From contig NZ_CP014854.1 in the NCBI RefSeq assembly GCF_002214365.1, positions 1,550,001-1,614,000 on the forward strand: a stretch of 64,000 nucleotides of DNA. Reading direction: 5' to 3'. The translations under genes were made by a program, and so were the position numbers. Below are positions 17,560 through 49,849 of this stretch, one piece after another. The DNA is from Thermococcus celer Vu 13 = JCM 8558. Lineage in GTDB: Archaea; Methanobacteriota_B; Thermococci; Thermococcales; Thermococcaceae. How positions within the stretch are numbered: the first letter of the stretch is position 1; each line of letters opens with the position of its first letter. A model generated the notes under the pieces. It was not told the DNA's origin. It was given only the letters and a program-made list of their open reading frames with translations, and searched no databases.

Positions 17560-17995
17560 ATCAATTCTCCTCGAGTCTTATTGCAACATAGCTCCCCGTG
17601 AATACGGGCGGTTACTTCAAGCCACTTTCAATTCTCCTCGAGTCTTATTGCAACCCGTCCAGAGGGCCGTTAATTACTGGCTAAACTCACACCTTTCAAT
17701 TCTCCTCGAGTCTTATTGCAACTCGAGGCTAAAGGACTACCTCGAGGAGCACAAGGACGTCTTTCAATTCTCCTCGAGTCTTATTGCAACGCGGCATCAG
17801 GGGGCTACGTGCTGATTGAGCTGAACACTTTCAATTCTCCTCGAGTCTTATTGCAACTCACCTCAGAATAATTTTATCTCAGAATAATTTTATCCCTCTT
17901 TCAATTCTCCTCGAGTCTTATTGCAACAGTTCCGATTTCGGCGTTCATGAGGTTAAGACCGCCATCTTTCAATTCTCCTCGAGTCTTATTGCAAC
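17558..17995 (-). CRISPR. CRISPR array, 7 repeats and 6 spacers, no cas genes nearby
   Basis: Six identical 30-base repeats (plus-strand CTTTCAATTCTCC ... TCTTATTGCAAC) at 17625, 17693, 17761, 17828, 17898 and 17966, plus a degenerate copy at 17558-17587 that has lost its first three bases. Spacers are 37, 38, 38, 37, 40 and 38 bases. The transcribed orientation is minus: GTTGCAATAAGACTC ... AATTGAAAG, the Thermococcales family repeat whose processing by Cas6 leaves the 8-base tag ATTGAAAG. The degenerate copy marks the old, leader-distal end at the left; the AT-rich leader lies to the right. Spacer 5 contains a perfect tandem 16-base duplication. No cas gene lies in the window, so effector proteins must act in trans. 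Confidence 0.98.
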
Positions 17996-39155: not shown

Positions 39156-39620
39156 TTACGGTACGCTCCACACTCCCGCCTTTCTCAGGATCTCCCCGTA
39201 CTCGTCCTCTCCCACGTATCTACCGGAAACGGCGATGAACCTCTTCGGTCTGACGACCCGCGGATACTTCCGTAGGTTCTTCAGTCTGACGGTCATCCAG
39301 GGCCTCGGCCTCCTGCCGCGCGAGTGCCACTTCTCCCTGTCCCTCTCGTATTGCCTGAGCTCCTCAGGGGTGAGGAAAAGCTCCGGCCCGTACTTCTCGA
39401 TTATCTCCCCGACGTTCGTGAAGAACTCTACGTCCTCAACCTCGGCCTCGCCGTGCCAGCCCTGCTCTTCCCGCGAGGCGTAGAAGATCACCTTCATCCC
39501 GGGCTTCAGTCGGAGCGTCGAGGGTTTGACGAAGACGCTCCTCCCCCCGTCGAGTATCCTGCTTAGGAAAGCCCTCGGAACCGGGAAGGTTACCCCGATG
39601 ATGTTCCCGTCACCGCCCAT
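39156..39620 (-). CDS. DUF365 family protein
   Basis: 154 residues, MGGDGNIIGVTFPVPRAFL, FVKPSTLRLKPGMKVIFYASREEQGWHGEAE and a C-terminal RYVGEDEYGEILRKAG. This matches my memory of archaeal DUF365 (COG1931-like) proteins, whose fold resembles PUA/ASCH/EVE modules that bind modified bases. The function is unknown. ATG 39620 is chosen because GGTGGG precedes it; the GTG at 39629 is unlikely. It is the last ordinary gene before the accessory block and is transcribed away from it. Confidence 0.75.
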   Translation of the reverse strand: MGGDGNIIGVTFPVPRAFLSRILDGGRSVFVKPSTLRLKPGMKVIFYASREEQGWHGEAEVEDVEFFTNVGEIIEKYGPELFLTPEELRQYERDREKWHSRGRRPRPWMTVRLKNLRKYPRVVRPKRFIAVSGRYVGEDEYGEILRKAGVWSVP

Positions 39621-39825
39621 GCTTCCCACCGGTTACGGTTCGTCCCGAACCTTTAAGGGTTTTCCGTAAGAACTGTAAAGGCACGGGGAAGCTCCTCATG
39701 CCAGTTTCGGGGTCGTGACGGGGAAGGGCAAGGGCCCGCACATGGTTCCGACGTGATTCCCCTGTGGGGATTTCCACGGCGGTAAAATATTCCCGGGCGG
39801 TACCCCCGTATCGTCCGCCATCAAA

Positions 39826-39836
39826 AGGTATTTATT
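39826..39836 (+). promoter_or_regulatory. Probable TATA box of the DUF1156-DUF499 operon
   Basis: GTATTTATTG in the only gene-free 250 bases before the four-gene block. Initiation about 25 bases on would leave a leader of about 10-15 bases before ATG 39871, containing AGGGTG. All four genes are plausibly read from here, since no other internal gap exceeds 6 bases. Confidence 0.4.
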
Positions 39837-39870: not shown

Positions 39871-42800
39871 ATGGAGAGAAGATTTACTGAAAGCCCTGAT
39901 TTTCCCATACGAGAGCTCAACGAGGCGAGCGCCAAGGAGAAGGGGCCCGCAAGGCCGCCGTACTGGGAGATGGTCTTCTACTGGACGAGAAAACCCCTCA
40001 TCGGGGTGAGAGGAGTCATCGCCGGTGCGCTCCTGCCCGAGAACATCGATCCTAATAGGTTCAAAACGCTCATCGGCCTGAACGAGAAAACCCCGCACAA
40101 GGTTAACCCAAAGATCCCGCCCGAGTGGGAGAAGTACTTCCGCGGTAAGAAGCTCCTCGACCCCTTCGCGGGCTTTGGCTCAATCCCCCTCGAGGCCCTG
40201 CGCCTCGGACTGGACGTTACCGCCGTCGAGCTCCTGCCGACAACCTCCGTCTTCCTCAAGGCCGTCCTCGAGTACCCGAAGAAGTTCGGGAAGCCCCTCG
40301 TGAAGGACGTCGAGAGGTGGGGAAGCTGGATAACCGAGCGGCTGAAGAACGACCCTGAAATCAAAGAGCTCTACGACGATGATGTCGCGGTGTACATCGG
40401 CACGTGGGAGGTGAAGTGCCCGCACTGCGGGAGATGGACTCCAGTTATAGGGAACCACTGGCTGGCGAGAGTGAAGGACGGTAAGGGCTACAAGCGATTA
40501 GCTTACATGGTGCCCGAGCGGGACGGCGATGAAAAGATCAAAATACGGATTATCGACCTCAACGACGTCTTCGGTAACGTCTCGAGGGCAAAGGTGGACG
40601 GCAAGAAGGGGGAGATAACCTTCGAGGGTGATTTTTACGTGAGGAAGGCCCGCGAGGCCGTGGCGGCGGGCAAGCTCAGGGAGAATGACTTCAGGGTCGA
40701 GGGTGATAGGATCGTCTTCCGGGTTCCAAGCGCGAACATAGAAGCGAGGAAGAGCCAGCTCACCTGCCTATCCTGCGGGAACGTTATAAAATACGTGGAT
40801 GAGAACGGGCGGCACTACCTCGACAAGAAGGGCGCGAAGGGGAACCTCGAGTTCTACGCGAAGTTTGCCCTTCGGAAGTACCACGAGGGCGACGAGAGGT
40901 TCGCGCGGCAGAGGCTGCTCGTGAGGATGAAGAAGGTCGGCAGTGACCTCGTCTTCGAGCCCGCGACGGAGGAGGACAACGGGAGGCTCCTGAAGGCGAA
41001 GGAGAAAGTGCGGGAGCTGATTGAGAATGGGGATCCGGATGTTCCTGTTGAGCCGGTTGCCCCCTATGATCCTAGAAATATTTGGGTTATAAATTACGGA
41101 TTCTTTAAATGGTATAATTTATTCAATCCCCGCCAGGTCCTCACGCTAATGAAGATTACAAAGCTCATCCGCGAGGTTGGAAAGAAGATTGAGGCGGAGA
41201 AGATAGAGGAAGGCTGGGAGGCAGAGAAAGCCTTCGAGTACGCGGAGGCCGTGGCGACGTACCTGAGCATGGCGATGGTGAAGTACCTCGACTTCAACTC
41301 AGTTTGCACCCGTTGGAACCCCGGTTGGATAAAGTACGAGGAAACATTATCCACCCGTGGAATTGCTATGATGTGGAGCTGGGTGGATGTTTCCCCATTC
41401 GCTCGAAAAACTGGCGCATTCCGTAGAACTCTTGAAAACCAAAAGGAAGCTCTCGCCTACCTCACCTCTGCCCTCGCCCCCTCGGGTCAGAAAACCCTCA
41501 CGGGACTATCAAACAACACCGTCAGCGTCCTCAGGGGCGACGCCACCTCTCTCAACCTCGGCGAGAAGTTCGACGTCATCGTCACCGACCCGCCCTACGC
41601 GGACGACGTGCCGTACACGGAGCTTTCGGACTTCTACTACGTCTGGCTGAAGCGGGCGTTGAGCGACTCCGACGGGCGAAAACTTCTCCCAAGGTTCCAC
41701 AGGGACGCTTTCTTCAAGAAAATCGGCCCGAGGTTGGTTGAAATAAGGACGCAGTGGGAGGAGTTCGCGAGGAAGGAGGTCTCCACGAACCCCGGCCGCT
41801 TCATGGACGATAAGAACAAGAAGGAGCGGGCCGTTCAGCACTTCGAGAACCTCTTCTCCCAGGCCTTCGTGGCCATGAGGGAGCACCTGAAGGACGATGG
41901 GTTACTCGTTACCTACTATGCACACACCTCTCTCGACGCGTGGGCGAACCTGATAGAGGCGGGCTGGAGGAGGGCGAAGCTCCAGATAACCCGCGCCATC
42001 CCGCTGAACACGGAATCGAAGACGAGCATAGTCAGCCGGGGTAAGATGAGCCTCGACACTTCCATCGTGGCCGTGTGGAGGAAGCCGTCGGGCGAGAGGA
42101 AACCCGTTATGGTCTCCTCCCTGAGGGAGGAGCTAAGGAGGAAGGCCCGGGAATCGGCGGGGGAGTTCATGCGCTACGGCTATCAAAGTCTCGACCTTCT
42201 CTACGGCGTCATGGCGGCGGTTCTCGAGGAGGTAACGAAGCACTCCGAGGTGCTCTCCCCGAAGGGCCCGCTCTCCACGGCTGAGGTCCTCAAAGAGGTT
42301 TACGGTGCGACGGTCAGGGGCATCATAGAGGCCATCGCCGAGGTGGCCGAGGGCAGGGCCGTGAGCTCAAACGAGGCCCTCTTCTACACCGCCTACAAGG
42401 TGCTCTTTGGGAACGCGACGCTGAGGCCGAACGACGTGATACTCCTGAACCTCGCCACCTTCACCGACCCGAACGGTCTCGTGAAGGCTGGCATCCTGAA
42501 GGCCACGGGTTCCGCCAAGGAGTTCACCCTCAACACCCCAGACCTGCTCGGGAGGAAGGCCCTCGACCAGAGGGAGCTCCAGAAGTTCCTCTACGGCAGG
42601 GGCATAAACCCCCTCGAGCCCGAGCCTGGGAACTCCATCGATGTCCTTCACCTGCTCGAGTACCACGCCCTCTCCGGCCGCTCCAAGCTCGGGGAGGAGG
42701 TCGAAAGGCTCAGGCGGAGGTGGAGCACCGAGGTCGATGAGGCCCTCACCATGGCGAAGCTCATCGCGGACTACTACGCCGCCGTTTCCAGAAAGCTGAC

Positions 42801-42924
42801 GCCCCTCGGGGGCATCGCAAAGGCCGACGAGCGCGAGGTTGAGAGGGAGCTTGAGAATAACGGCCACTTCGAGGTCATCCTCATGAGGAGGCTTCTCCGC
42901 GGCGCTGGAGGTGGTATGCTATGA
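39871..42924 (+). CDS. DUF1156 DNA methyltransferase (COG1743-like)
   Basis: A 1017-residue putative N6-adenine or N4-cytosine DNA methylase. The N-terminus has the DUF1156 arrangement (FPIRELNEASAKEKG, then YWTRKPLIGVRGVIAGAL). SAM-binding motif I is LLDPFAGFGSIPLEAL at about residue 96; the catalytic DPPY motif (VIVTDPPYADDVPYTELSDF) lies at about 572. Between them are about 470 residues carrying two CxxC pairs (CPHCG near 183, CLSCG near 298), probably one zinc ribbon. The C-terminal 250 residues are helical, likely target recognition or partner contact. ATG 39871 follows AGGGTG. The stop overlaps the DUF499 gene (ATGA). It should protect host DNA or mark it. Two AT-rich patches (about 41060-41125 and 41340-41450) differ from the surroundings. 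Confidence 0.92.
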   Translation: MERRFTESPDFPIRELNEASAKEKGPARPPYWEMVFYWTRKPLIGVRGVIAGALLPENIDPNRFKTLIGLNEKTPHKVNPKIPPEWEKYFRGKKLLDPFAGFGSIPLEALRLGLDVTAVELLPTTSVFLKAVLEYPKKFGKPLVKDVERWGSWITERLKNDPEIKELYDDDVAVYIGTWEVKCPHCGRWTPVIGNHWLARVKDGKGYKRLAYMVPERDGDEKIKIRIIDLNDVFGNVSRAKVDGKKGEITFEGDFYVRKAREAVAAGKLRENDFRVEGDRIVFRVPSANIEARKSQLTCLSCGNVIKYVDENGRHYLDKKGAKGNLEFYAKFALRKYHEGDERFARQRLLVRMKKVGSDLVFEPATEEDNGRLLKAKEKVRELIENGDPDVPVEPVAPYDPRNIWVINYGFFKWYNLFNPRQVLTLMKITKLIREVGKKIEAEKIEEGWEAEKAFEYAEAVATYLSMAMVKYLDFNSVCTRWNPGWIKYEETLSTRGIAMMWSWVDVSPFARKTGAFRRTLENQKEALAYLTSALAPSGQKTLTGLSNNTVSVLRGDATSLNLGEKFDVIVTDPPYADDVPYTELSDFYYVWLKRALSDSDGRKLLPRFHRDAFFKKIGPRLVEIRTQWEEFARKEVSTNPGRFMDDKNKKERAVQHFENLFSQAFVAMREHLKDDGLLVTYYAHTSLDAWANLIEAGWRRAKLQITRAIPLNTESKTSIVSRGKMSLDTSIVAVWRKPSGERKPVMVSSLREELRRKARESAGEFMRYGYQSLDLLYGVMAAVLEEVTKHSEVLSPKGPLSTAEVLKEVYGATVRGIIEAIAEVAEGRAVSSNEALFYTAYKVLFGNATLRPNDVILLNLATFTDPNGLVKAGILKATGSAKEFTLNTPDLLGRKALDQRELQKFLYGRGINPLEPEPGNSIDVLHLLEYHALSGRSKLGEEVERLRRRWSTEVDEALTMAKLIADYYAAVSRKLTPLGGIAKADEREVERELENNGHFEVILMRRLLRGAGGGML

Positions 42925-45900
42925 GGCTCGGCCCCTTTGAGGTCTGGGATGATGTGATGGACGAGACCCTCGACACCCAGGTCGCCCCGGAGCTCGGGGA
43001 CGTCGTGAGCGGAAACGCTCCGGAGATATACACCGACCCGTTGGAGTTCTTCAGGAGGACGTACTTCACGGAGTCGATGCTCGACATCATAGAAAAGCTC
43101 GTTGAGACCCTCGAGGGCGGCGAGAGGCACAACATCTTCCTGATATACTCCCTCTTCGGCGGAGGTAAGACGCACACCCTTATCACCCTCTACCACGCCT
43201 TCAAGAATCCCGACGCCATGCTCGACCCGGAGGTCCTCGCCGGCCACGACCCCGAGAGGAGGGAGAGGATAAGGGAGCTCGCGGAGAGGATCAGGTCCCT
43301 CGGTAGGGTTCGCGTTGTTCCCGTCTACGGCAAGGGAAGGATAGGCCAGCCGAGCAAGCCCCTCGAGGTGGGCCCCTACAGGGTGAGGACCGTCTGGGGC
43401 TACATCGCCCACGTCCTCGGCAGGTACCACATCGTGGAGAGGGACGACGAGAACCAAACTGTGCCCGAGCCCGACACGCTCAGGGAGCTCTTCAAGGGGG
43501 AGAGTGTTGTCCTCCTCGTCGATGAGATTGCGGACTACTTCGACAACCTCTACAACTCGGGAAGCGAGGACGACAGGCGCTACGCGAAGAACGTGGACAA
43601 CTTCTTTGACAGGCTCTCCACGGCCCTGCTCCGTTCCACGAGCGCCATGGTGATGACCCTTCCCATGGAGAAGAGGGGGGATACCTTCGAGGTCGAGAGG
43701 GAGTACAACAGGGAGGTCGTCATGGCCATCAGGGACGGCGTTCAGAGGGTCGGGGGTTCGGAGCTCTACTCGCCCATCCGGACGGGAGGGGTGAGCAATG
43801 AGCTCGTCGAAGTCCTCAAGAAGAGGATTTTCAAGGGGTTCAACGATGAGGAGAGGGTCAGGATCCTCAGCAGGATGAACTCCGAGCTGGGCAACACCGA
43901 CGTTTTCGGCCAGGCTCTCCACTTCAGCGAGGAGCTCAGGAGGAGCTACCCCTTCCACCCCGAGTACGTCGAGGTTCTGAGGACGATAATCGAGAGGACG
44001 GGCCTGCAGAGGACGAGGGACATGCTCAGGATCACGAGGATCGTCATCAGGGACCTGGTCGGGGAATACCTTGAGACGGGCTTCGCACCAGCTCTTATAA
44101 TGCCCCACCACGTAGACCTCAACAACGAGAAGCTGAGGGGCATGCTCTTCGGCAAGAACGAGACCTTCATGGACTACTCCATCATCGTTGACACCGACAT
44201 CATGAAGTCGAAGTTCAAAGACTTCCGCCTGCCCGAACTTGCGGAGGCAGTTATGAAGTACGTTTTCCTCAGGACGTATCCCTTCGACTCCCCGGTTCCG
44301 CTCCCGGGTTTCCCCACGGCGGAATCCATCGCGAGGGGGGTTTACGAGCCGAGGACCTTTGAGCTCAAGAACTGGCTCCCCACCGACATAAGGGACACCG
44401 TTGAGGATATAACCGCGAGCGTCCGCTTCGTCTACCTCAACAAGAAGGAAGGCACGCTCTGGTTCTGGCGCGTCGCCAACGTGGCCCAGATGGTCGATAG
44501 CAAGGCGAGGGAGCTCATCGAAACCCGCTACGGGGAGGTCTGGAACGAGCTCGTGAAGTACGCCGAGAGGATGATCCGCGAGAGGAAGAGGCTCTCCGTA
44601 ACGAAGGGCAAGGGCGCCAGGATCGAGGACCACGTTACCTTCTTCAAGCCCAACCACATAATCGTCACGAGGGATCCACAGGAGTTCCAGGATACCCCCG
44701 AATACAAACTCCAGGTTCTCGTGAGGGAGGACGTCGACGAGGGAACCCTCAGAAGGATTATATACGCCTACGGCACAGGGACGAGAACCTACAGGAACAC
44801 CATAGTGGTATGCTACCCAGCACCTGAAAGCTTCAAACACCTCATAGAGACCACCGCGAGGGCAATGGCCTGCGGCGAGGTGATAAGCGACATTGAGATC
44901 AAATACGGCAGGTTCGGTGAGGACGTTGTTAAGATTCAGATGAGTATGGTCAAGGAAATTCTCAGCCACGCCCTTGAGGACCTCGAGTCCCAGATCGTTA
45001 ACTCCTTCAGGAAGGTCGCTTATCCCGACCACAACGAGGTCCGCGTTACCACCGCCCAGGCGAGCTCTAAGTCGGTCGTGGAGAACGTCTACTCGGCCCT
45101 CAAGGGCAACGGTAAGATAGTGGACGAGCTGGACTTCGAGTGGCTCGTCGATACCCTCAAAGGGGCGGGTATCGAGATCCTCAGACCCGAGGGATATTCC
45201 TTCTCGGAGCTGACCTCGATAATACGCACCAACACGCACCTGCCCATGATCGAAAGCAGGGCTATCACGGAGGCAATAAAGAACGCGATAATCAACCTCA
45301 AGATAGGGGTTGAGCGGAAAGACAGGGTGTTCTTCAAGAAGGTGTATCGGGAATTACCCGAAGGGGAGGAAGTCGGCGAACCACCGAGTTCCTTAGAGCC
45401 TCACGACCTCATACTCCCGAGGGAAATCGCGCTCAGGAAGCAGGTATGCAACCTCATAAAGGGTGAAAAGGACCTCATTGTTCCAAAGGACGACAAGAAC
45501 TACCGCGTAAGGACGTGGTACGAGGTCTACTCACCCTCATCCGGCGTTGGGATTCCCCTGAGAACCCTCGTGATTTCCGATGAGAACGGCGAGTGCAGGG
45601 TGAAGGAGGGTTACCTCGATACGATCCTCTGGGGCCACATCGTCGAGAAGAGAGAGGAAATCGAGATCACGGAGGGGGAGTTCGAAATCGATGTGGACTC
45701 GCCGGAGGTGAAAGCAAAACCCGGTGAGGCGGTGGGGATTAACGTCAGGCTCATTCCTCTCGGCAGGGATTCCTTCAGCGTGGAACTCTCGGCGAACAGG
45801 GGCGAGCTTGATTCCAGCGAGGTTCACCTGGAGAACGGCCAACCCTTCAACGTCACCTGGACGGTTGTAATGCCCGAGAAGCGAACAACCGCAACGCTCG

Positions 45901-46310
45901 AGGCGAGAAGCCATAAGAGAACACGCTACCTGGATATCGACCTCGTCCCCATCATTGACCCGGACATCGTGGACACGGACAGACTCGAAGAAAAGCACAA
46001 GGGCATGTTGCTGGTGGCGATACTCTCAATCGGCGACCTCGAGAGCCTCACGATGGTTCCCGATGATGTCAAGGGCCTCGTGAGCGGGAGCCTGAGGATT
46101 GAAAGCCCCCGCTGGGAGAGCAACGTCGAGGAAGTTGACAAGGAGGTGTTCAGTTACCTTGCCAAAGAGCTCGAGGACTTCCTCGGGGCAAAGGCCGAAC
46201 TCAAAGTCGACCTCAGGCTGGAGAAGGAGGTCAGGATCAACGACCTCATGTTTGAGAAGCTGAGGCCCCTCAACGGCAGGGTAACCTTCAGGCTCAGGAA
46301 GGGGGAGTGA
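42921..46310 (+). CDS. DUF499 AAA+ ATPase (COG1483-like)
   Basis: A 1129-residue ATPase of the DUF499 family that regularly accompanies DUF1156 methylases in defence islands. The Walker A is IYSLFGGGKTHTLITL at about residue 76-91 and Walker B VVLLVDEIADYFDNL at about 195-209; the remainder of the N-half (RRSYPFHPEYVEVLRTIIERT) looks like the AAA+ lid seen in HerA/BrxC-like proteins. After about residue 915 a beta-rich stretch (IDVDSPEVKAKPGEAVGINV through TTATLEARSHKRTRYLDID) resembles an Ig-like fold, then a helical end. It would act as the DNA-sensing or motor platform. It overlaps the methylase by 4 bases and is followed 6 bases later by the next gene. Confidence 0.9.
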   Translation: MRLGPFEVWDDVMDETLDTQVAPELGDVVSGNAPEIYTDPLEFFRRTYFTESMLDIIEKLVETLEGGERHNIFLIYSLFGGGKTHTLITLYHAFKNPDAMLDPEVLAGHDPERRERIRELAERIRSLGRVRVVPVYGKGRIGQPSKPLEVGPYRVRTVWGYIAHVLGRYHIVERDDENQTVPEPDTLRELFKGESVVLLVDEIADYFDNLYNSGSEDDRRYAKNVDNFFDRLSTALLRSTSAMVMTLPMEKRGDTFEVEREYNREVVMAIRDGVQRVGGSELYSPIRTGGVSNELVEVLKKRIFKGFNDEERVRILSRMNSELGNTDVFGQALHFSEELRRSYPFHPEYVEVLRTIIERTGLQRTRDMLRITRIVIRDLVGEYLETGFAPALIMPHHVDLNNEKLRGMLFGKNETFMDYSIIVDTDIMKSKFKDFRLPELAEAVMKYVFLRTYPFDSPVPLPGFPTAESIARGVYEPRTFELKNWLPTDIRDTVEDITASVRFVYLNKKEGTLWFWRVANVAQMVDSKARELIETRYGEVWNELVKYAERMIRERKRLSVTKGKGARIEDHVTFFKPNHIIVTRDPQEFQDTPEYKLQVLVREDVDEGTLRRIIYAYGTGTRTYRNTIVVCYPAPESFKHLIETTARAMACGEVISDIEIKYGRFGEDVVKIQMSMVKEILSHALEDLESQIVNSFRKVAYPDHNEVRVTTAQASSKSVVENVYSALKGNGKIVDELDFEWLVDTLKGAGIEILRPEGYSFSELTSIIRTNTHLPMIESRAITEAIKNAIINLKIGVERKDRVFFKKVYRELPEGEEVGEPPSSLEPHDLILPREIALRKQVCNLIKGEKDLIVPKDDKNYRVRTWYEVYSPSSGVGIPLRTLVISDENGECRVKEGYLDTILWGHIVEKREEIEITEGEFEIDVDSPEVKAKPGEAVGINVRLIPLGRDSFSVELSANRGELDSSEVHLENGQPFNVTWTVVMPEKRTTATLEARSHKRTRYLDIDLVPIIDPDIVDTDRLEEKHKGMLLVAILSIGDLESLTMVPDDVKGLVSGSLRIESPRWESNVEEVDKEVFSYLAKELEDFLGAKAELKVDLRLEKEVRINDLMFEKLRPLNGRVTFRLRKGE

Positions 46311-46316
46311 CGCGAC

Positions 46317-46847
46317 ATGGAAAACTCAGTGGAGTACCAGGTCGTGCTGAAGTACATTAAAAGGGCCTCCCTCCCCGTTGAGAGGACCCAGAAACTGGCG
46401 GAGTTCATGCCCGTCTTCAACGTCAAGGGCTCCGGGGAAGAGAAGAGGGTTACAGGTAAGGTGGAGGCCCGTGCAAGGGTCTTCCTCCCAGAGTTTCTCA
46501 ATTTCGCCAGGAAGCTCGGATTCAGCGTTGATGCCAGCGAGAGCCTTTTGAAGTGGCTCAACCTGCCACCGTCCAGGAAGGCCAAACTTGAGTACAGCGG
46601 GAGCAAGAGGGTGGTCCTGAAGACCGGTGACGATTACGCGTACCTCCGCCTCATGATCTACAGTGTTGTCATGTCCATCCTGAAGAACCCCAACGACTGG
46701 GGCCAGCTTGAGGATTACGTGAGTTCTATGGAGCCGATGGCCCTCCGCTTCTGGGCCTCCAAGATCCGGAACACCTACTGGAAGTACGGAAACAGGAGGA
46801 GGCTCGACTACCTGGCAAGACGCTTTCTGGAGGTGGAGTGGATTTGA
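46317..46847 (+). CDS. Unrecognised 176-residue protein of the DUF1156-DUF499 operon
   Basis: I do not recognise this protein. Starts MENSVEYQVVLKYIKRASLP; the first half appears to be beta-rich and basic (GEEKRVTGKVEARARVFLPEF), the middle is KAKLEYSGSKRVVLKTGDDYAY, and the end is helical and aromatic/basic (ALRFWASKIRNTYWKYGNRRRLDYLARRF). It lacks a membrane segment, cysteines or catalytic signature. It fills the place that a DUF3780 protein takes in some related loci, but I cannot match it to that family. ATG 46317 has GGGAGTGA upstream. It overlaps the helicase gene by about 10 bases, so it is tightly co-expressed. Small size and basic tail suggest a nucleic-acid-binding or adaptor role (inference). 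Confidence 0.85.
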   Translation: MENSVEYQVVLKYIKRASLPVERTQKLAEFMPVFNVKGSGEEKRVTGKVEARARVFLPEFLNFARKLGFSVDASESLLKWLNLPPSRKAKLEYSGSKRVVLKTGDDYAYLRLMIYSVVMSILKNPNDWGQLEDYVSSMEPMALRFWASKIRNTYWKYGNRRRLDYLARRFLEVEWI

Positions 46848-49800
46848 CGGACGTTGAGAAGGCAATCCTCAGGGACGTTCTCCTCCACAGCCCCGCCCTC
46901 TTTTATACTTCCCTCACCGCCCCCACTGGAAGGCCGATTGACCCGTTCAAACACCAGTTCCAGTCCCTTTACCACGCCATGGTCTCTCACCCGGTTAGGA
47001 TGTTGATAGCCGATGAGATAGGACTCGGAAAAACGGTTCAGGCCCTCGCGATCGCAAGGTACCTCGAGCTCCAGCGGGGGGCAAGGAAGATCCTCGTTCT
47101 CGTGCCGAAGATCCTCCGCGAACAGTGGAAAATGGAGATAAAACGCGTTGGGGGAGTCCCCTGGGTCATACACTCCGGAGGCGAGGTTAGGAACGTTCTC
47201 AACGCCGTCAGGAATGCCGGGAGGGGGTACGTTGTTGTCTCGATCGACTTGGCCAAGAGACCGCCCCACAGGGAGGAATTCCTCGGAGTCAACTGGGACC
47301 TGGTCATCATCGACGAGGCCCACAACGTTACCCTCGGTACCCAGAGGTTTGACTTCGTCAGGGAACTCATCGGAAAGGGATGGAATCGCCTCAACGTCCT
47401 CCTACTCTCGGCCACGCCACACAGGGGCAACCCAAAGGATTACCTCGCAAGGATCTCCCTTCTTGACCCCACTTTAACCCCACTTTACCCCAGGCTCGAC
47501 GATCCCCACTTCTACGGCAAAACACACGGCACTCTGGTTCTCCGGAGGACGAAGAAAACCGTGAACGAGCTTGAGGGAAGGGAAGTATTCAAAAAATGTG
47601 ACTTCAACGCCGTTGTTGTCGAAATCACAGAGGCGGAGAGGCTCTTCTTCAGGGAACTTCAGAACGTGCTGTTTGAGATGATAAAGAACTCCAGGGAGAA
47701 CTCGCCGGAGGCCTTACTCGCAGTCCTCCTTCGCAAGAGGGCTGCTTCCAGTTATGGGGCCGCCCTCAAGACCATCAGCAAGATAGCGGAGAGTGCCAAC
47801 ACTGAGCGGAAGGGGAGGGCGGAGAAGGTTAGCAAATACATACAGAGCCTCTTCGGTCTCGGCTACGATGAGATGGAGCTCGAGGAATTCAATGAAATTG
47901 ATGACGCCGTCGAGAAGATAATCGAGGAGTACTCACCCTTCCTCGACGAGGGGCAGAAAGCGGCCCTCAGAAAGATACTTCGCCTGGGGGAGAGGATAGG
48001 GGAACGCGATAGCAAACTCGAGATGGTGGCGGGGGTCGTGGCCTACCACCTGAAGAAAGGGGAGAAGGTCATCGTGTTCACCGAGTTCAAGGACACGCTG
48101 GATTACCTGACCAAAAGACTTCCAAAGGTCCTGGCAGAGAAACATAGAATTCACCTTTCAAGGGAGGATATCTCTTTTCTTCACGGGGGGATGAGCAGTA
48201 ATGACATCGAGGAAGGGATGGCCCGGTTTGAGAAGAGAGGAAAGCTCCTCATCTCGACGGACGTGGCCTCTGAGGGGCTGAACCTTCAGGTTGCGAGCGT
48301 TCTCATAAACTACGAGGCCCCATGGAGCCCTATAAAGCTGGAGCAGAGGGTGGGGAGGATATGGCGGCTGAGCCAGCCACGGGAAACAACGGCTTACACG
48401 TTCTTCCTCGCTGCCGAAACCGACCTGTACGTTCTTGAAAACCTCTACCAGAAGATAATGAACATAGCGGACGCACTCGGAAGTGGACCTAAGCTGGGTA
48501 GGCCCATCTTTGGCCAGAGAATGCTCTCCGGGGACTTTGAACACCTCTGGAAGGAGGAACCGGTGGAAGGGACGTTTGAACGGGAGAAACCCTCTGAGTA
48601 CGAGCTGGTACTCGCCTCGATTAAAAGGGAGCTGAGCGGATACGCGGGGGCGATAATAAACACCCTGAAGTCTTTAAGACAGAATATCGAGAAGGTCGTC
48701 CCACCAGACACCGCCGATCAGGTTCGGAAAGGGCTCGAAAGCATTCTCTCACCCCGGGACTTTGACTCAAACTTTATTTACGAGGTTCTCGAGGGGTACC
48801 TGGAGATAGTCCTCAAAAAGCCCAGCGTTCCGGAGATTCGACCGTTACTTTACAGAATCTTGGAAAACGGAAAGGACGTTGAGACCCCCCTCAGGATTGG
48901 GGTTAACAAGAAAGTGGGAGAATACCGGCTTTACTCCATCCGGCTTGTGGACTCGGAGAGCGGAGAGGAGTTGCACAGGTATCCCGTTCTCGTCAAAACG
49001 GGTAAAAGCGGCATTAAAAAGGTCTTCTATGGGACGGAATTACTTATGGAAATCACGAAGATACTCTCAAATGAACACCTCATACTGGGGCCCCTTCGTA
49101 GAGACGACCCGAACGGAATTCATATAGAAGGAAAGTTAATGACACTCGCAAGGGATAGATTTTACAACATCAAATCAAAGTACAGGGATTATGATACGCA
49201 ACTCAGAAGGAAGTTGAGGAAGAGGCCACTTTTTAAGGAGACGAAAATCCTGGTCAAAGAGCTCGTAAGGATAGAAGGCATAACCGAGGGTAGATTCGCC
49301 ATATTGAAGCACGTCCCCCAGGGCCTCATCGAGCTCTACGGTCTCGGTGAAAACGATATTGAAATTCCCACAAAAGAATATGAGAACATCGTTGAAAGAA
49401 ACTTCGTTCCCCTGAAGGATATCCTCGAAAGCGAGCAGAGGGCAATGGGAATCGTTATGGAGCTTGAAAGGAGGCGCCTGGAGCAAGAATACGGGCTGAA
49501 CGGTGACTGGAAGGTTGAGGACGTTTCTCTGAGGGAGCACTACGACATCAAGGTCACGGAACCTGAAAATGAGAGATACATTGAGGTCAAGGGGCATAAA
49601 CCCCTAATCTTAACGGCCGAGATTACTTCCGCGGAATACGAGTTCGCAAGGGCCCACAGGGATAGGTACTGGCTTTATATCGTCGCGAATCTCGGAAAGA
49701 ACCGGCCGGTGATTCTGAAGGTGTTCAGGCCCTTTGAGGATAAGAGGAAGATCTACGCGGTCTTGGAAGACGGAAGGGAGGTGGACGTAACGACCGAAGT

Positions 49801-49849
49801 AACGGTTCACACACGGGAAAAAACGAGGAGGGTCATCAGCCTTAAGTGA
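46838..49849 (+). CDS. SNF2-type helicase with C-terminal DUF3883 nuclease-like domain
   Basis: A 1003-residue superfamily 2 ATPase. Motif I is ADEIGLGKTVQAL (residues about 57-69), II is IIDEAHNV (about 157), III is LLSATPHRG, V/VI are EGLNLQVASVLINYEAPW and RVGRIWRLSQPRE (about 500). A long helical middle region follows. Residues about 895-945 carry DUF3883: HYDIKVTEPENERYIEVKGH, which places D and E-x-K as in PD-(D/E)xK nucleases, then ITSAEYEFARAHRDRYWLYIV. Thus one polypeptide may translocate and cut DNA. The start is GTG 46838; TTG 46844 has better spacing to GGAGGTG. It is the last gene of the operon, completing a motor/nuclease partner for the methylase. Confidence 0.9.
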   Translation: MDLTDVEKAILRDVLLHSPALFYTSLTAPTGRPIDPFKHQFQSLYHAMVSHPVRMLIADEIGLGKTVQALAIARYLELQRGARKILVLVPKILREQWKMEIKRVGGVPWVIHSGGEVRNVLNAVRNAGRGYVVVSIDLAKRPPHREEFLGVNWDLVIIDEAHNVTLGTQRFDFVRELIGKGWNRLNVLLLSATPHRGNPKDYLARISLLDPTLTPLYPRLDDPHFYGKTHGTLVLRRTKKTVNELEGREVFKKCDFNAVVVEITEAERLFFRELQNVLFEMIKNSRENSPEALLAVLLRKRAASSYGAALKTISKIAESANTERKGRAEKVSKYIQSLFGLGYDEMELEEFNEIDDAVEKIIEEYSPFLDEGQKAALRKILRLGERIGERDSKLEMVAGVVAYHLKKGEKVIVFTEFKDTLDYLTKRLPKVLAEKHRIHLSREDISFLHGGMSSNDIEEGMARFEKRGKLLISTDVASEGLNLQVASVLINYEAPWSPIKLEQRVGRIWRLSQPRETTAYTFFLAAETDLYVLENLYQKIMNIADALGSGPKLGRPIFGQRMLSGDFEHLWKEEPVEGTFEREKPSEYELVLASIKRELSGYAGAIINTLKSLRQNIEKVVPPDTADQVRKGLESILSPRDFDSNFIYEVLEGYLEIVLKKPSVPEIRPLLYRILENGKDVETPLRIGVNKKVGEYRLYSIRLVDSESGEELHRYPVLVKTGKSGIKKVFYGTELLMEITKILSNEHLILGPLRRDDPNGIHIEGKLMTLARDRFYNIKSKYRDYDTQLRRKLRKRPLFKETKILVKELVRIEGITEGRFAILKHVPQGLIELYGLGENDIEIPTKEYENIVERNFVPLKDILESEQRAMGIVMELERRRLEQEYGLNGDWKVEDVSLREHYDIKVTEPENERYIEVKGHKPLILTAEITSAEYEFARAHRDRYWLYIVANLGKNRPVILKVFRPFEDKRKIYAVLEDGREVDVTTEVTVHTREKTRRVISLK

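What the first reader, a model, noticed from the sequence alone, without database searches (positions are those of the whole stretch)
39871..49849. Four-gene DUF1156 methylase / DUF499 ATPase / unknown / SNF2-DUF3883 operon: candidate antiviral system
Seen: four plus-strand genes with overlaps or 6-base gaps, flanked by ordinary core genes, about 10 kb in all. They encode a DNA methylase with DPPY, an AAA+ ATPase, a 176-residue unrecognised protein, and an SF2 motor fused to a nuclease-like domain. Known: DUF1156 (COG1743-type) and DUF499 (COG1483-type) families recur together in defence islands, and other systems such as DISARM and BREX combine a methylase with large ATPase/helicase parts. 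Inference: this is a complete modify-and-restrict unit in which the methylase marks self, DUF499 is a sensor or loader and the helicase cuts. The combination of this third gene with a DUF3883-tailed helicase is not one I can name.
Basis: partly seen in the sequence, partly recalled or inferred. Interest (0 to 1): 0.88.

Follow-up and report, generated by a model that had tools for sequence, protein, structure and literature searches.

The report
Archaeal BREX-related defence operon, new subunit
A mobile four-gene archaeal operon, very likely a relative of the BREX antiviral systems, probably marks the cell's own DNA and attacks unmarked DNA, and its unnamed third gene turns out to be a conserved neighbour of the system's central ATPase, with a predicted fold unlike any solved structure, found across several archaeal lineages.

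Summary
Four same-strand genes (39871-49849) encode a DUF1156 DNA methylase (M), a DUF499 ATPase (A), a 176-residue protein without a family (S), and a SNF2 helicase with a NOV_C tail (H). The tail keeps a D...ExK nuclease motif. The class is known: DUF499-centred BREX-related (BR) systems (PMC12839542), predicted in archaea in 2020 (PMC7641849).

What is new here concerns the subtype. (1) S is real and conserved: it lies directly downstream of A in all 44 other loci found, from Thermococcales to Methanocaldococcus, Archaeoglobaceae and Thermoproteota. (2) S-bearing ATPases form one clade, apart from Type-1/Hma, Type-2 and putative Type-3 ATPases. (3) S has a confidently modelled fold with no match in PDB or BFVD. 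It is related to DUF7680, which also follows DUF499. It shares DUF3780's order of helices and strands, but homology to DUF3780 was not shown. (4) The operon moves between genera. In near-identical copies only a methylase segment before DPPY, or the ATPase C-terminus, is exchanged; S and H stay constant. (5) In two loci S stays with A while McrB/McrC-like genes replace H.

Best reading: M sets target specificity, A+S is the constant core, H is the effector. Defence itself was not tested.

The parts
39156..39629 (-). DUF365 gene (157 aa), divergent neighbour of M; probable optional companion, possibly a PUA/ASCH-like reader
   Evidence: PF04033 136 bits; the only window flank gene recurring beside M in other Thermococcales loci; present in 10 of 14 S-operon genomes vs 20 of 80 others, Fisher p 0.0012 without correction for kinship; PDB relative 2kku E 5.5e-33, weak E 0.83 hits to 5guq/5gus/5y6c
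39820..39836 (+). archaeal promoter-like element AAAAGG-TATTTAT, about 35-50 nt before the M start codon
   Evidence: read by eye; pattern only
39871..42924 (+). M: DUF1156 N6-adenine-type DNA methyltransferase (motif I DPFAGFGS aa 97, CPHCG aa 183 and CLSCG aa 299, DPPY aa 573)
   Evidence: PF06634 36 bits; PADLOC MTase_II PDLC03352 1401 bits; motif positions
41278..41580 (+). approximate place of the exchangeable segment of M (about aa 470-570, just before DPPY), inferred target-recognition segment
   Evidence: L035 vs L036: this segment 30-40% identical while the rest of M is 84-100% and A/S/H are 98%; transferred to the window by its position before DPPY, so approximate
42921..46310 (+). 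A: DUF499 AAA+ ATPase (Walker A GGGKTHT aa 80, Walker B LLVDEI aa 198)
   Evidence: PF04465 1121 bits; motifs; tree clade
45618..46307 (+). exchangeable C-terminal module of A (about aa 900-1129), beta-sandwich-like then alpha/beta by eye
   Evidence: L026 vs L027: 26-46% identity here, 92-100% before it; alignment A7
46317..46847 (+). S: 176-aa constant subunit, unnamed family
   Evidence: no Pfam/PADLOC/NCBIfam hit; 42-sequence alignment A4; AF2 model pLDDT 86.7, pTM 0.83; no PDB or BFVD match at E<=0.001
46838..49849 (+). H: SNF2 translocase fused to NOV_C/DUF3883 nuclease-like tail (D903, E916, K918)
   Evidence: motifs GLGKT 62, DEAH 159, QRVGRIWR 503; D...ExK conserved in most of 35 aligned homologues, lost in L108/L110

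Best explanation
This is a complete operon of a distinct archaeal clade of the DUF499-centred, BREX-related restriction-like systems. Proposed mechanism: M methylates the host's own sites, and its exchangeable segment sets which sites. A, a Cdc6/ORC-like ATPase whose C-terminal module is also exchangeable, assembles with S into a constant core that binds M and foreign DNA. When sites are unmodified, or the A module senses an invader, A+S engages H, whose SNF2 motor translocates along DNA and whose PD-(D/E)XK-like tail cuts it. S is a structural adaptor of A, not an enzyme. SHOWN here: gene content and order, patchy distribution, transfer of the operon between genera, conservation of S beside A, the modular exchanges in M and A, the intact nuclease motif. 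INFERRED: methylation, shared specificity, complex formation, cutting, antiviral outcome, and the adaptor role of S.
For: Domains. The class is described in PMC12839542 and PMC7641849. Patchy: 14 of 94 genomes; every one of the 14 DUF499 hits over 790 bits has S, none of the 10 genomes with only other DUF499 hits does. Order M-A-S-H across archaea. Transfer: L035 and L036, in different GTDB genera, share the operon at 96.7% DNA identity, ending at the operon's edges. Within that pair A, S and H are 98% identical, yet one M segment is 30-40%, so restriction specificity, if sequence-specific, would have to come from M, as shown for BrxX in BREX (PMC11842806). A C-terminal exchange in L026/L027 with S 98.9% identical. 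S stays with A when H is replaced by McrB-like and McrC-like genes in L104/L107. Tree clade with SH-aLRT 100. S has one invariant residue, W146, and no conserved set of polar catalytic residues.
Against: No experiment shows methylation or antiviral activity of this clade. H lacks the N-terminal extension of Type-1 helicases, and its best PADLOC model is DrmD (226 bits), not HmaA (180). The exchanged M segment is inferred, not shown, to be the target-recognition domain; the published TRD description places an insert after core strand 2. The S-A partnership rests on gene order only; no complex could be modelled here.
Confidence: 0.72

Rival explanations
1. S is a divergent DUF3780: a methylation or modified-base reader, so the operon is an archaeal Type-2 BR system whose HKD nuclease was replaced by the C-terminal NOV_C nuclease.
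For: Same place beside DUF499; same predicted order beta-beta-beta-alpha-beta-four helices, matching the published description of DUF3780 as four strands and five helices; S is related to DUF7680, and DUF7680 ATPases group with DUF3780 ATPases; A has a beta-sandwich-like region, a feature of 53% of Type-2.
Against: Profile comparison S vs DUF3780 scores 10.9, inside the null of 41 unrelated profile pieces (max 17.9); S-ATPases are a separate clade from DUF3780 ATPases; no HKD domain in H.
Confidence: 0.4
2. S is an adaptor of the helicase H rather than of the ATPase A.
For: S and H overlap or abut in 41 of 44 loci.
Against: In L104 and L107 S follows A but H is absent from the 20 kb held and McrB/McrC-like genes stand in its place; in L119 H lies away from S; related DUF7680 genes, and DUF3780 genes, follow A with M, not H, next.
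Confidence: 0.15
3. The operon is a methylation-based regulator or addiction module (orphan methylase plus remodeller), not an antiviral system.
For: No antiviral data for this clade; addiction-like behaviour was suggested for such operons in PMC7641849.
Against: Patchy, horizontally moving, specificity segments exchanged, nuclease motif conserved, other copies flanked by EVE genes; the helicase of the relative Hma is reported to be anti-phage (PMC12839542).
Confidence: 0.1

Closest known systems
BR Type-1 / Hma system
   Same: DUF1156 methylase, DUF499 ATPase, SNF2 helicase with C-terminal PD-(D/E)XK-like domain
   Different: Extra constant gene S; no N-terminal extension (TUDOR) on H; ATPase in another clade; Hma models score far lower here (HmaA 180, HmaB 175, HmaC 151 bits) than on a true Type-1 Thermococcus copy (639, 494, 443)
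BR Type-2 (DUF3780) and the haloarchaeal DUF499-DUF7680 operons
   Same: A small alpha+beta protein directly after DUF499; S relates to DUF7680 by profile and to DUF3780 by order of helices and strands
   Different: Gene order A-small-M-H there, M-A-S-H here; no HKD nuclease in H; separate ATPase clades; no significant S-DUF3780 sequence similarity
BREX (Type 3)
   Same: Methylase + BrxC-like ATPase + SNF2 helicase logic
   Different: DUF499 not DUF6079/BrxC; no PglZ, BrxA, BrxB or BrxL found beside it
Archaeal COG1743-DUF499-SWI2/SNF2-nuclease operons linked to EVE (PMC7641849)
   Same: Very likely the same broad group; several relatives here carry an EVE gene downstream
   Different: The passages I read do not mention S; the window copy has no EVE gene next to H

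Membership tests
DUF499-centred BREX-related (BR) systems | DUF499 AAA+ ATPase | tested here: met
   PF04465 1121 bits over 1023 positions
DUF499-centred BREX-related (BR) systems | N6-methylase with DUF1156 N-terminus | tested here: met
   PF06634 36 bits, DPPY motif
DUF499-centred BREX-related (BR) systems | Swi2/Snf2 helicase in the same operon | tested here: met
BR Type-1 / Hma | only three core genes | tested here: not met
   S conserved beside A in 44 other loci
BR Type-1 / Hma | N-terminal TUDOR on helicase | tested here: not met
   helicase motif I at aa 62 with little before it; no TUDOR in Pfam scan
BR Type-1 / Hma | C-terminal active PD-(D/E)XK on helicase | tested here: met
   NOV_C with D903/E916/K918; activity itself untested
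BR Type-1 / Hma | ATPase in Type-1 clade | tested here: not met
   separate clade, SH-aLRT 100
BR Type-2 | DUF3780 gene | tested here: inconclusive
   no sequence support, same order of helices and strands
BR Type-2 | N-terminal HKD nuclease on helicase | tested here: not met
   no PLDc domain
BR Type-3 | PglZ (and usually iSTAND) in the locus | tested here: not met
   no such domain in the operon or its tested neighbours
BR Type-3 | helicase without nuclease | tested here: not met
   NOV_C with intact motif
BREX | BrxC/DUF6079 and PglZ | tested here: not met
   A matches DUF499 only; no PglZ
DISARM | NCBIfam DrmD cut-off reached by helicase | tested here: not met
   254 bits against a cut-off of 610
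Any restriction-modification system | DNA methylation and restriction activity | not testable with these tools
   needs methylome and infection assays

The most novel reading that the evidence does not exclude
S, DUF7680 and DUF3780 are one superfamily: a small partner of DUF499 ATPases in most DUF499 systems other than Type-1, with an alpha+beta fold that has no solved structure. The S-bearing archaeal operons would then be a fourth BR type with its own ATPase clade.
Probability: 0.45. Interest if true: 0.62.

Novelty: new variant of a known kind. Interest (0 to 1): 0.5.

Why it matters
DUF499/BREX-related systems are widespread but poorly understood. A constant partner gene that current family libraries miss should improve detection of these operons in archaea and gives a defined complex (A+S) to purify. 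Natural pairs that differ almost only in one methylase segment (L035/L036) or largely in the methylase segment and the ATPase C-terminus (L026/L027) make two open questions directly testable: which subunit sets target specificity, and what the ATPase tail senses.

Tried and rejected
Unrelated novelty of the whole operon: rejected, the class is published. Pbe/Dnd identity: rejected, PbeC is a CxC ABC-ATPase and PbeA an HKD helicase. S = DUF3780 by sequence: not supported. S in PDB, by sequence or fold, or in BFVD: nothing. First genome-contig scan with the single S sequence found nothing. PglZ search in Thermoproteota for Type-3 BR reference loci gave only loci without DUF499. Weak S-like hits in G091/G092 (stops inside) and G238/G208 were not counted. 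DUF365 as an obligate fifth gene: rejected, absent in 4 of 14 and present in 20 genomes without the operon, often beside other helicase genes. An Ig-like match for the A beta-sandwich in PDB reached only E 0.79.

Full report
Observation. M starts at ATG 39871; relatives in L035/L036 start with the same M(E/K)R-x-F-x-ESP-x-FPIRE sequence. M-A overlap by 4 bp, A-S are 6 bp apart, S-H overlap by 10 bp. Pfam gives DUF1156 for M, full-length DUF499 for A, nothing for S, and SNF2/Helicase_C/NOV_C for H. PADLOC and NCBIfam name the same kinds, NCBIfam below its cut-offs, and nothing for S. The window lies in a 1.87 Mb one-contig genome, in the same GTDB genus as a record titled Thermococcus sp. (G067 = L051).

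Known class. Rakesh and Krishnan (PMC12839542) define DUF499-centred BREX-related systems. Type-1 (= Hma) has three genes; Type-2 adds DUF3780 and an HKD helicase; Type-3 adds PglZ and usually an iSTAND protein. PMC7641849 had already predicted archaeal COG1743-DUF499-SWI2/SNF2-nuclease operons as restriction systems tied to EVE domains.

Distribution. 14 of 94 Thermococcaceae genomes carry S. The same 14 carry the only DUF499 hits above 790 bits; ten other genomes have only distant DUF499 hits (at most 140 bits) and no S match by the same searches. Order M-A-S-H holds in all 14; in G005 and G086 extra genes sit between M and A. Profile searches found S in 20 of 349 Thermoproteota-side genomes (phylum of G117), 6 of 345 in the phylum of G118 (two of them weak) and 5 of 36 in the phylum of G115. 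After fetching the neighbourhoods, A lies directly upstream of S on the same strand (-77 to +74 bp) in all 44 loci besides the window, and H directly downstream in 41, in one of these as a broken gene. The loci were mostly chosen by their S hits, so S is present by construction; the neighbourhood is not.

Clade. A tree of 49 DUF499 ATPases puts the 23 S-bearing ones in a single group, SH-aLRT 100. Separate groups hold Type-1/Hma (a Thermococcus copy scores 639/494/443 bits on HmaA/B/C), DUF3780 (Type-2), haloarchaeal DUF7680 operons, and L141/L143; the 304-aa gene of L143 has weak PglZ hits, so this group may be Type-3. Long branches make the deep joins unsure. By the published criteria the window is none of Types 1-3 exactly: it has the C-terminal nuclease of Type-1, a small alpha+beta gene as in Type-2, no TUDOR, no HKD and no PglZ.

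S. 42 sequences (homologues 12-82% identical to the window's) align. AlphaFold2 gives pLDDT 86.7 and pTM 0.83: three to four strands, a helix, strands, then four helices. No PDB or BFVD structure matches at E <= 0.001. Only W146 is invariant in 42 of 42, and most other conserved positions are hydrophobic or aromatic, which points to a structural role. S relates to DUF7680: profile score 36.7, or 25.3 without the bridging sequences, against at most 17.9 for 41 unrelated profile pieces; DUF7680 also directly follows DUF499, in haloarchaea. For DUF3780 the profile score is 10.9, inside the null, although its predicted order of helices and strands is the same (model pLDDT 74.2). I therefore report resemblance, not membership.

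Mobility and exchange. L035 and L036 lie in different genera (g3 and g5). Their operons are 96.7% identical at DNA level over the first 10.4 kb and 89% over the rest of M, and apart from one 190-bp stretch the flanks do not match. A, S and H are 98.2, 98.6 and 98.5% identical, but M falls to 30-40% in one segment before DPPY. The same segment is divergent in the L026/L027/L028/L029 comparisons. In L027 the C-terminal ~230 residues of A have been replaced (26-46% identity to L026, against 92-100% before them), while S is 98.9% identical to that of L026. Since A, S and H do not change with the methylase segment, any sequence-specific restriction must take its specificity from M; this is inference, in line with BrxX in BREX (PMC11842806).

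Effector. The NOV_C tail of H keeps a D...ExK motif in most homologues, consistent with a PD-(D/E)XK nuclease; L108/L110 have lost it. In L104 and L107 no H lies in the 20 kb held, and S is followed by an AAA_5 (McrB-like) gene and a gene that looks McrC-like by eye. This suggests that M-A-S is a core to which different effectors attach.

Companions. DUF365 (39156-39629) stands divergently beside M in most Thermococcales copies; EVE genes follow H in several copies but not in the window. Both may read modified bases; this is a lead only.

Limits. No methylome, no infection data, no complex model; the tree used the quick method; the null of 41 profiles is small; the Fisher test ignores kinship; the Type-3 assignment of the comparison group is uncertain.

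Noticed in passing
window 17625-17995 (-): Six CRISPR direct repeats of Rfam family CRISPR-DR6, about 22 kb from the operon.
   Followed up: no
L104 8051-9769 and 6760-8103; L107 8153-9799 and 6868-8169: M-A-S operon with McrB-like AAA_5 and McrC-like genes in the place of the SNF2 helicase; a possible effector swap.
   Followed up: partly
L035 13963-15394, L036 14045-15476: Two genes without Pfam match (285 and 200 aa) inserted between M and A; they look like a nucleotidyltransferase plus HTH pair by eye.
   Followed up: partly
L025 6787-9791 (G028); L122 7579-17526 (G845): Broken copies: helicase split in two in G028; M and H split in several pieces in G845.
   Followed up: no
L143 9405-14009, L144 8116-12720, L141 7845-12449: DUF499 followed by a 304-aa gene (weak PglZ hits in L143) and a 126-aa DUF7680/S-like gene: a possible Type-3 BR system that also has the small partner.
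   Followed up: partly
L164-L171: Haloarchaeal operons DUF499-DUF7680-methylase-helicase, in which DUF7680 holds the place of DUF3780; no paper in the library names DUF7680.
   Followed up: partly
window 39156-39629; L237, L243-L262: DUF365 genes in Thermococcales without the operon often lie next to another SNF2-type helicase gene and sometimes an EVE gene.
   Followed up: partly
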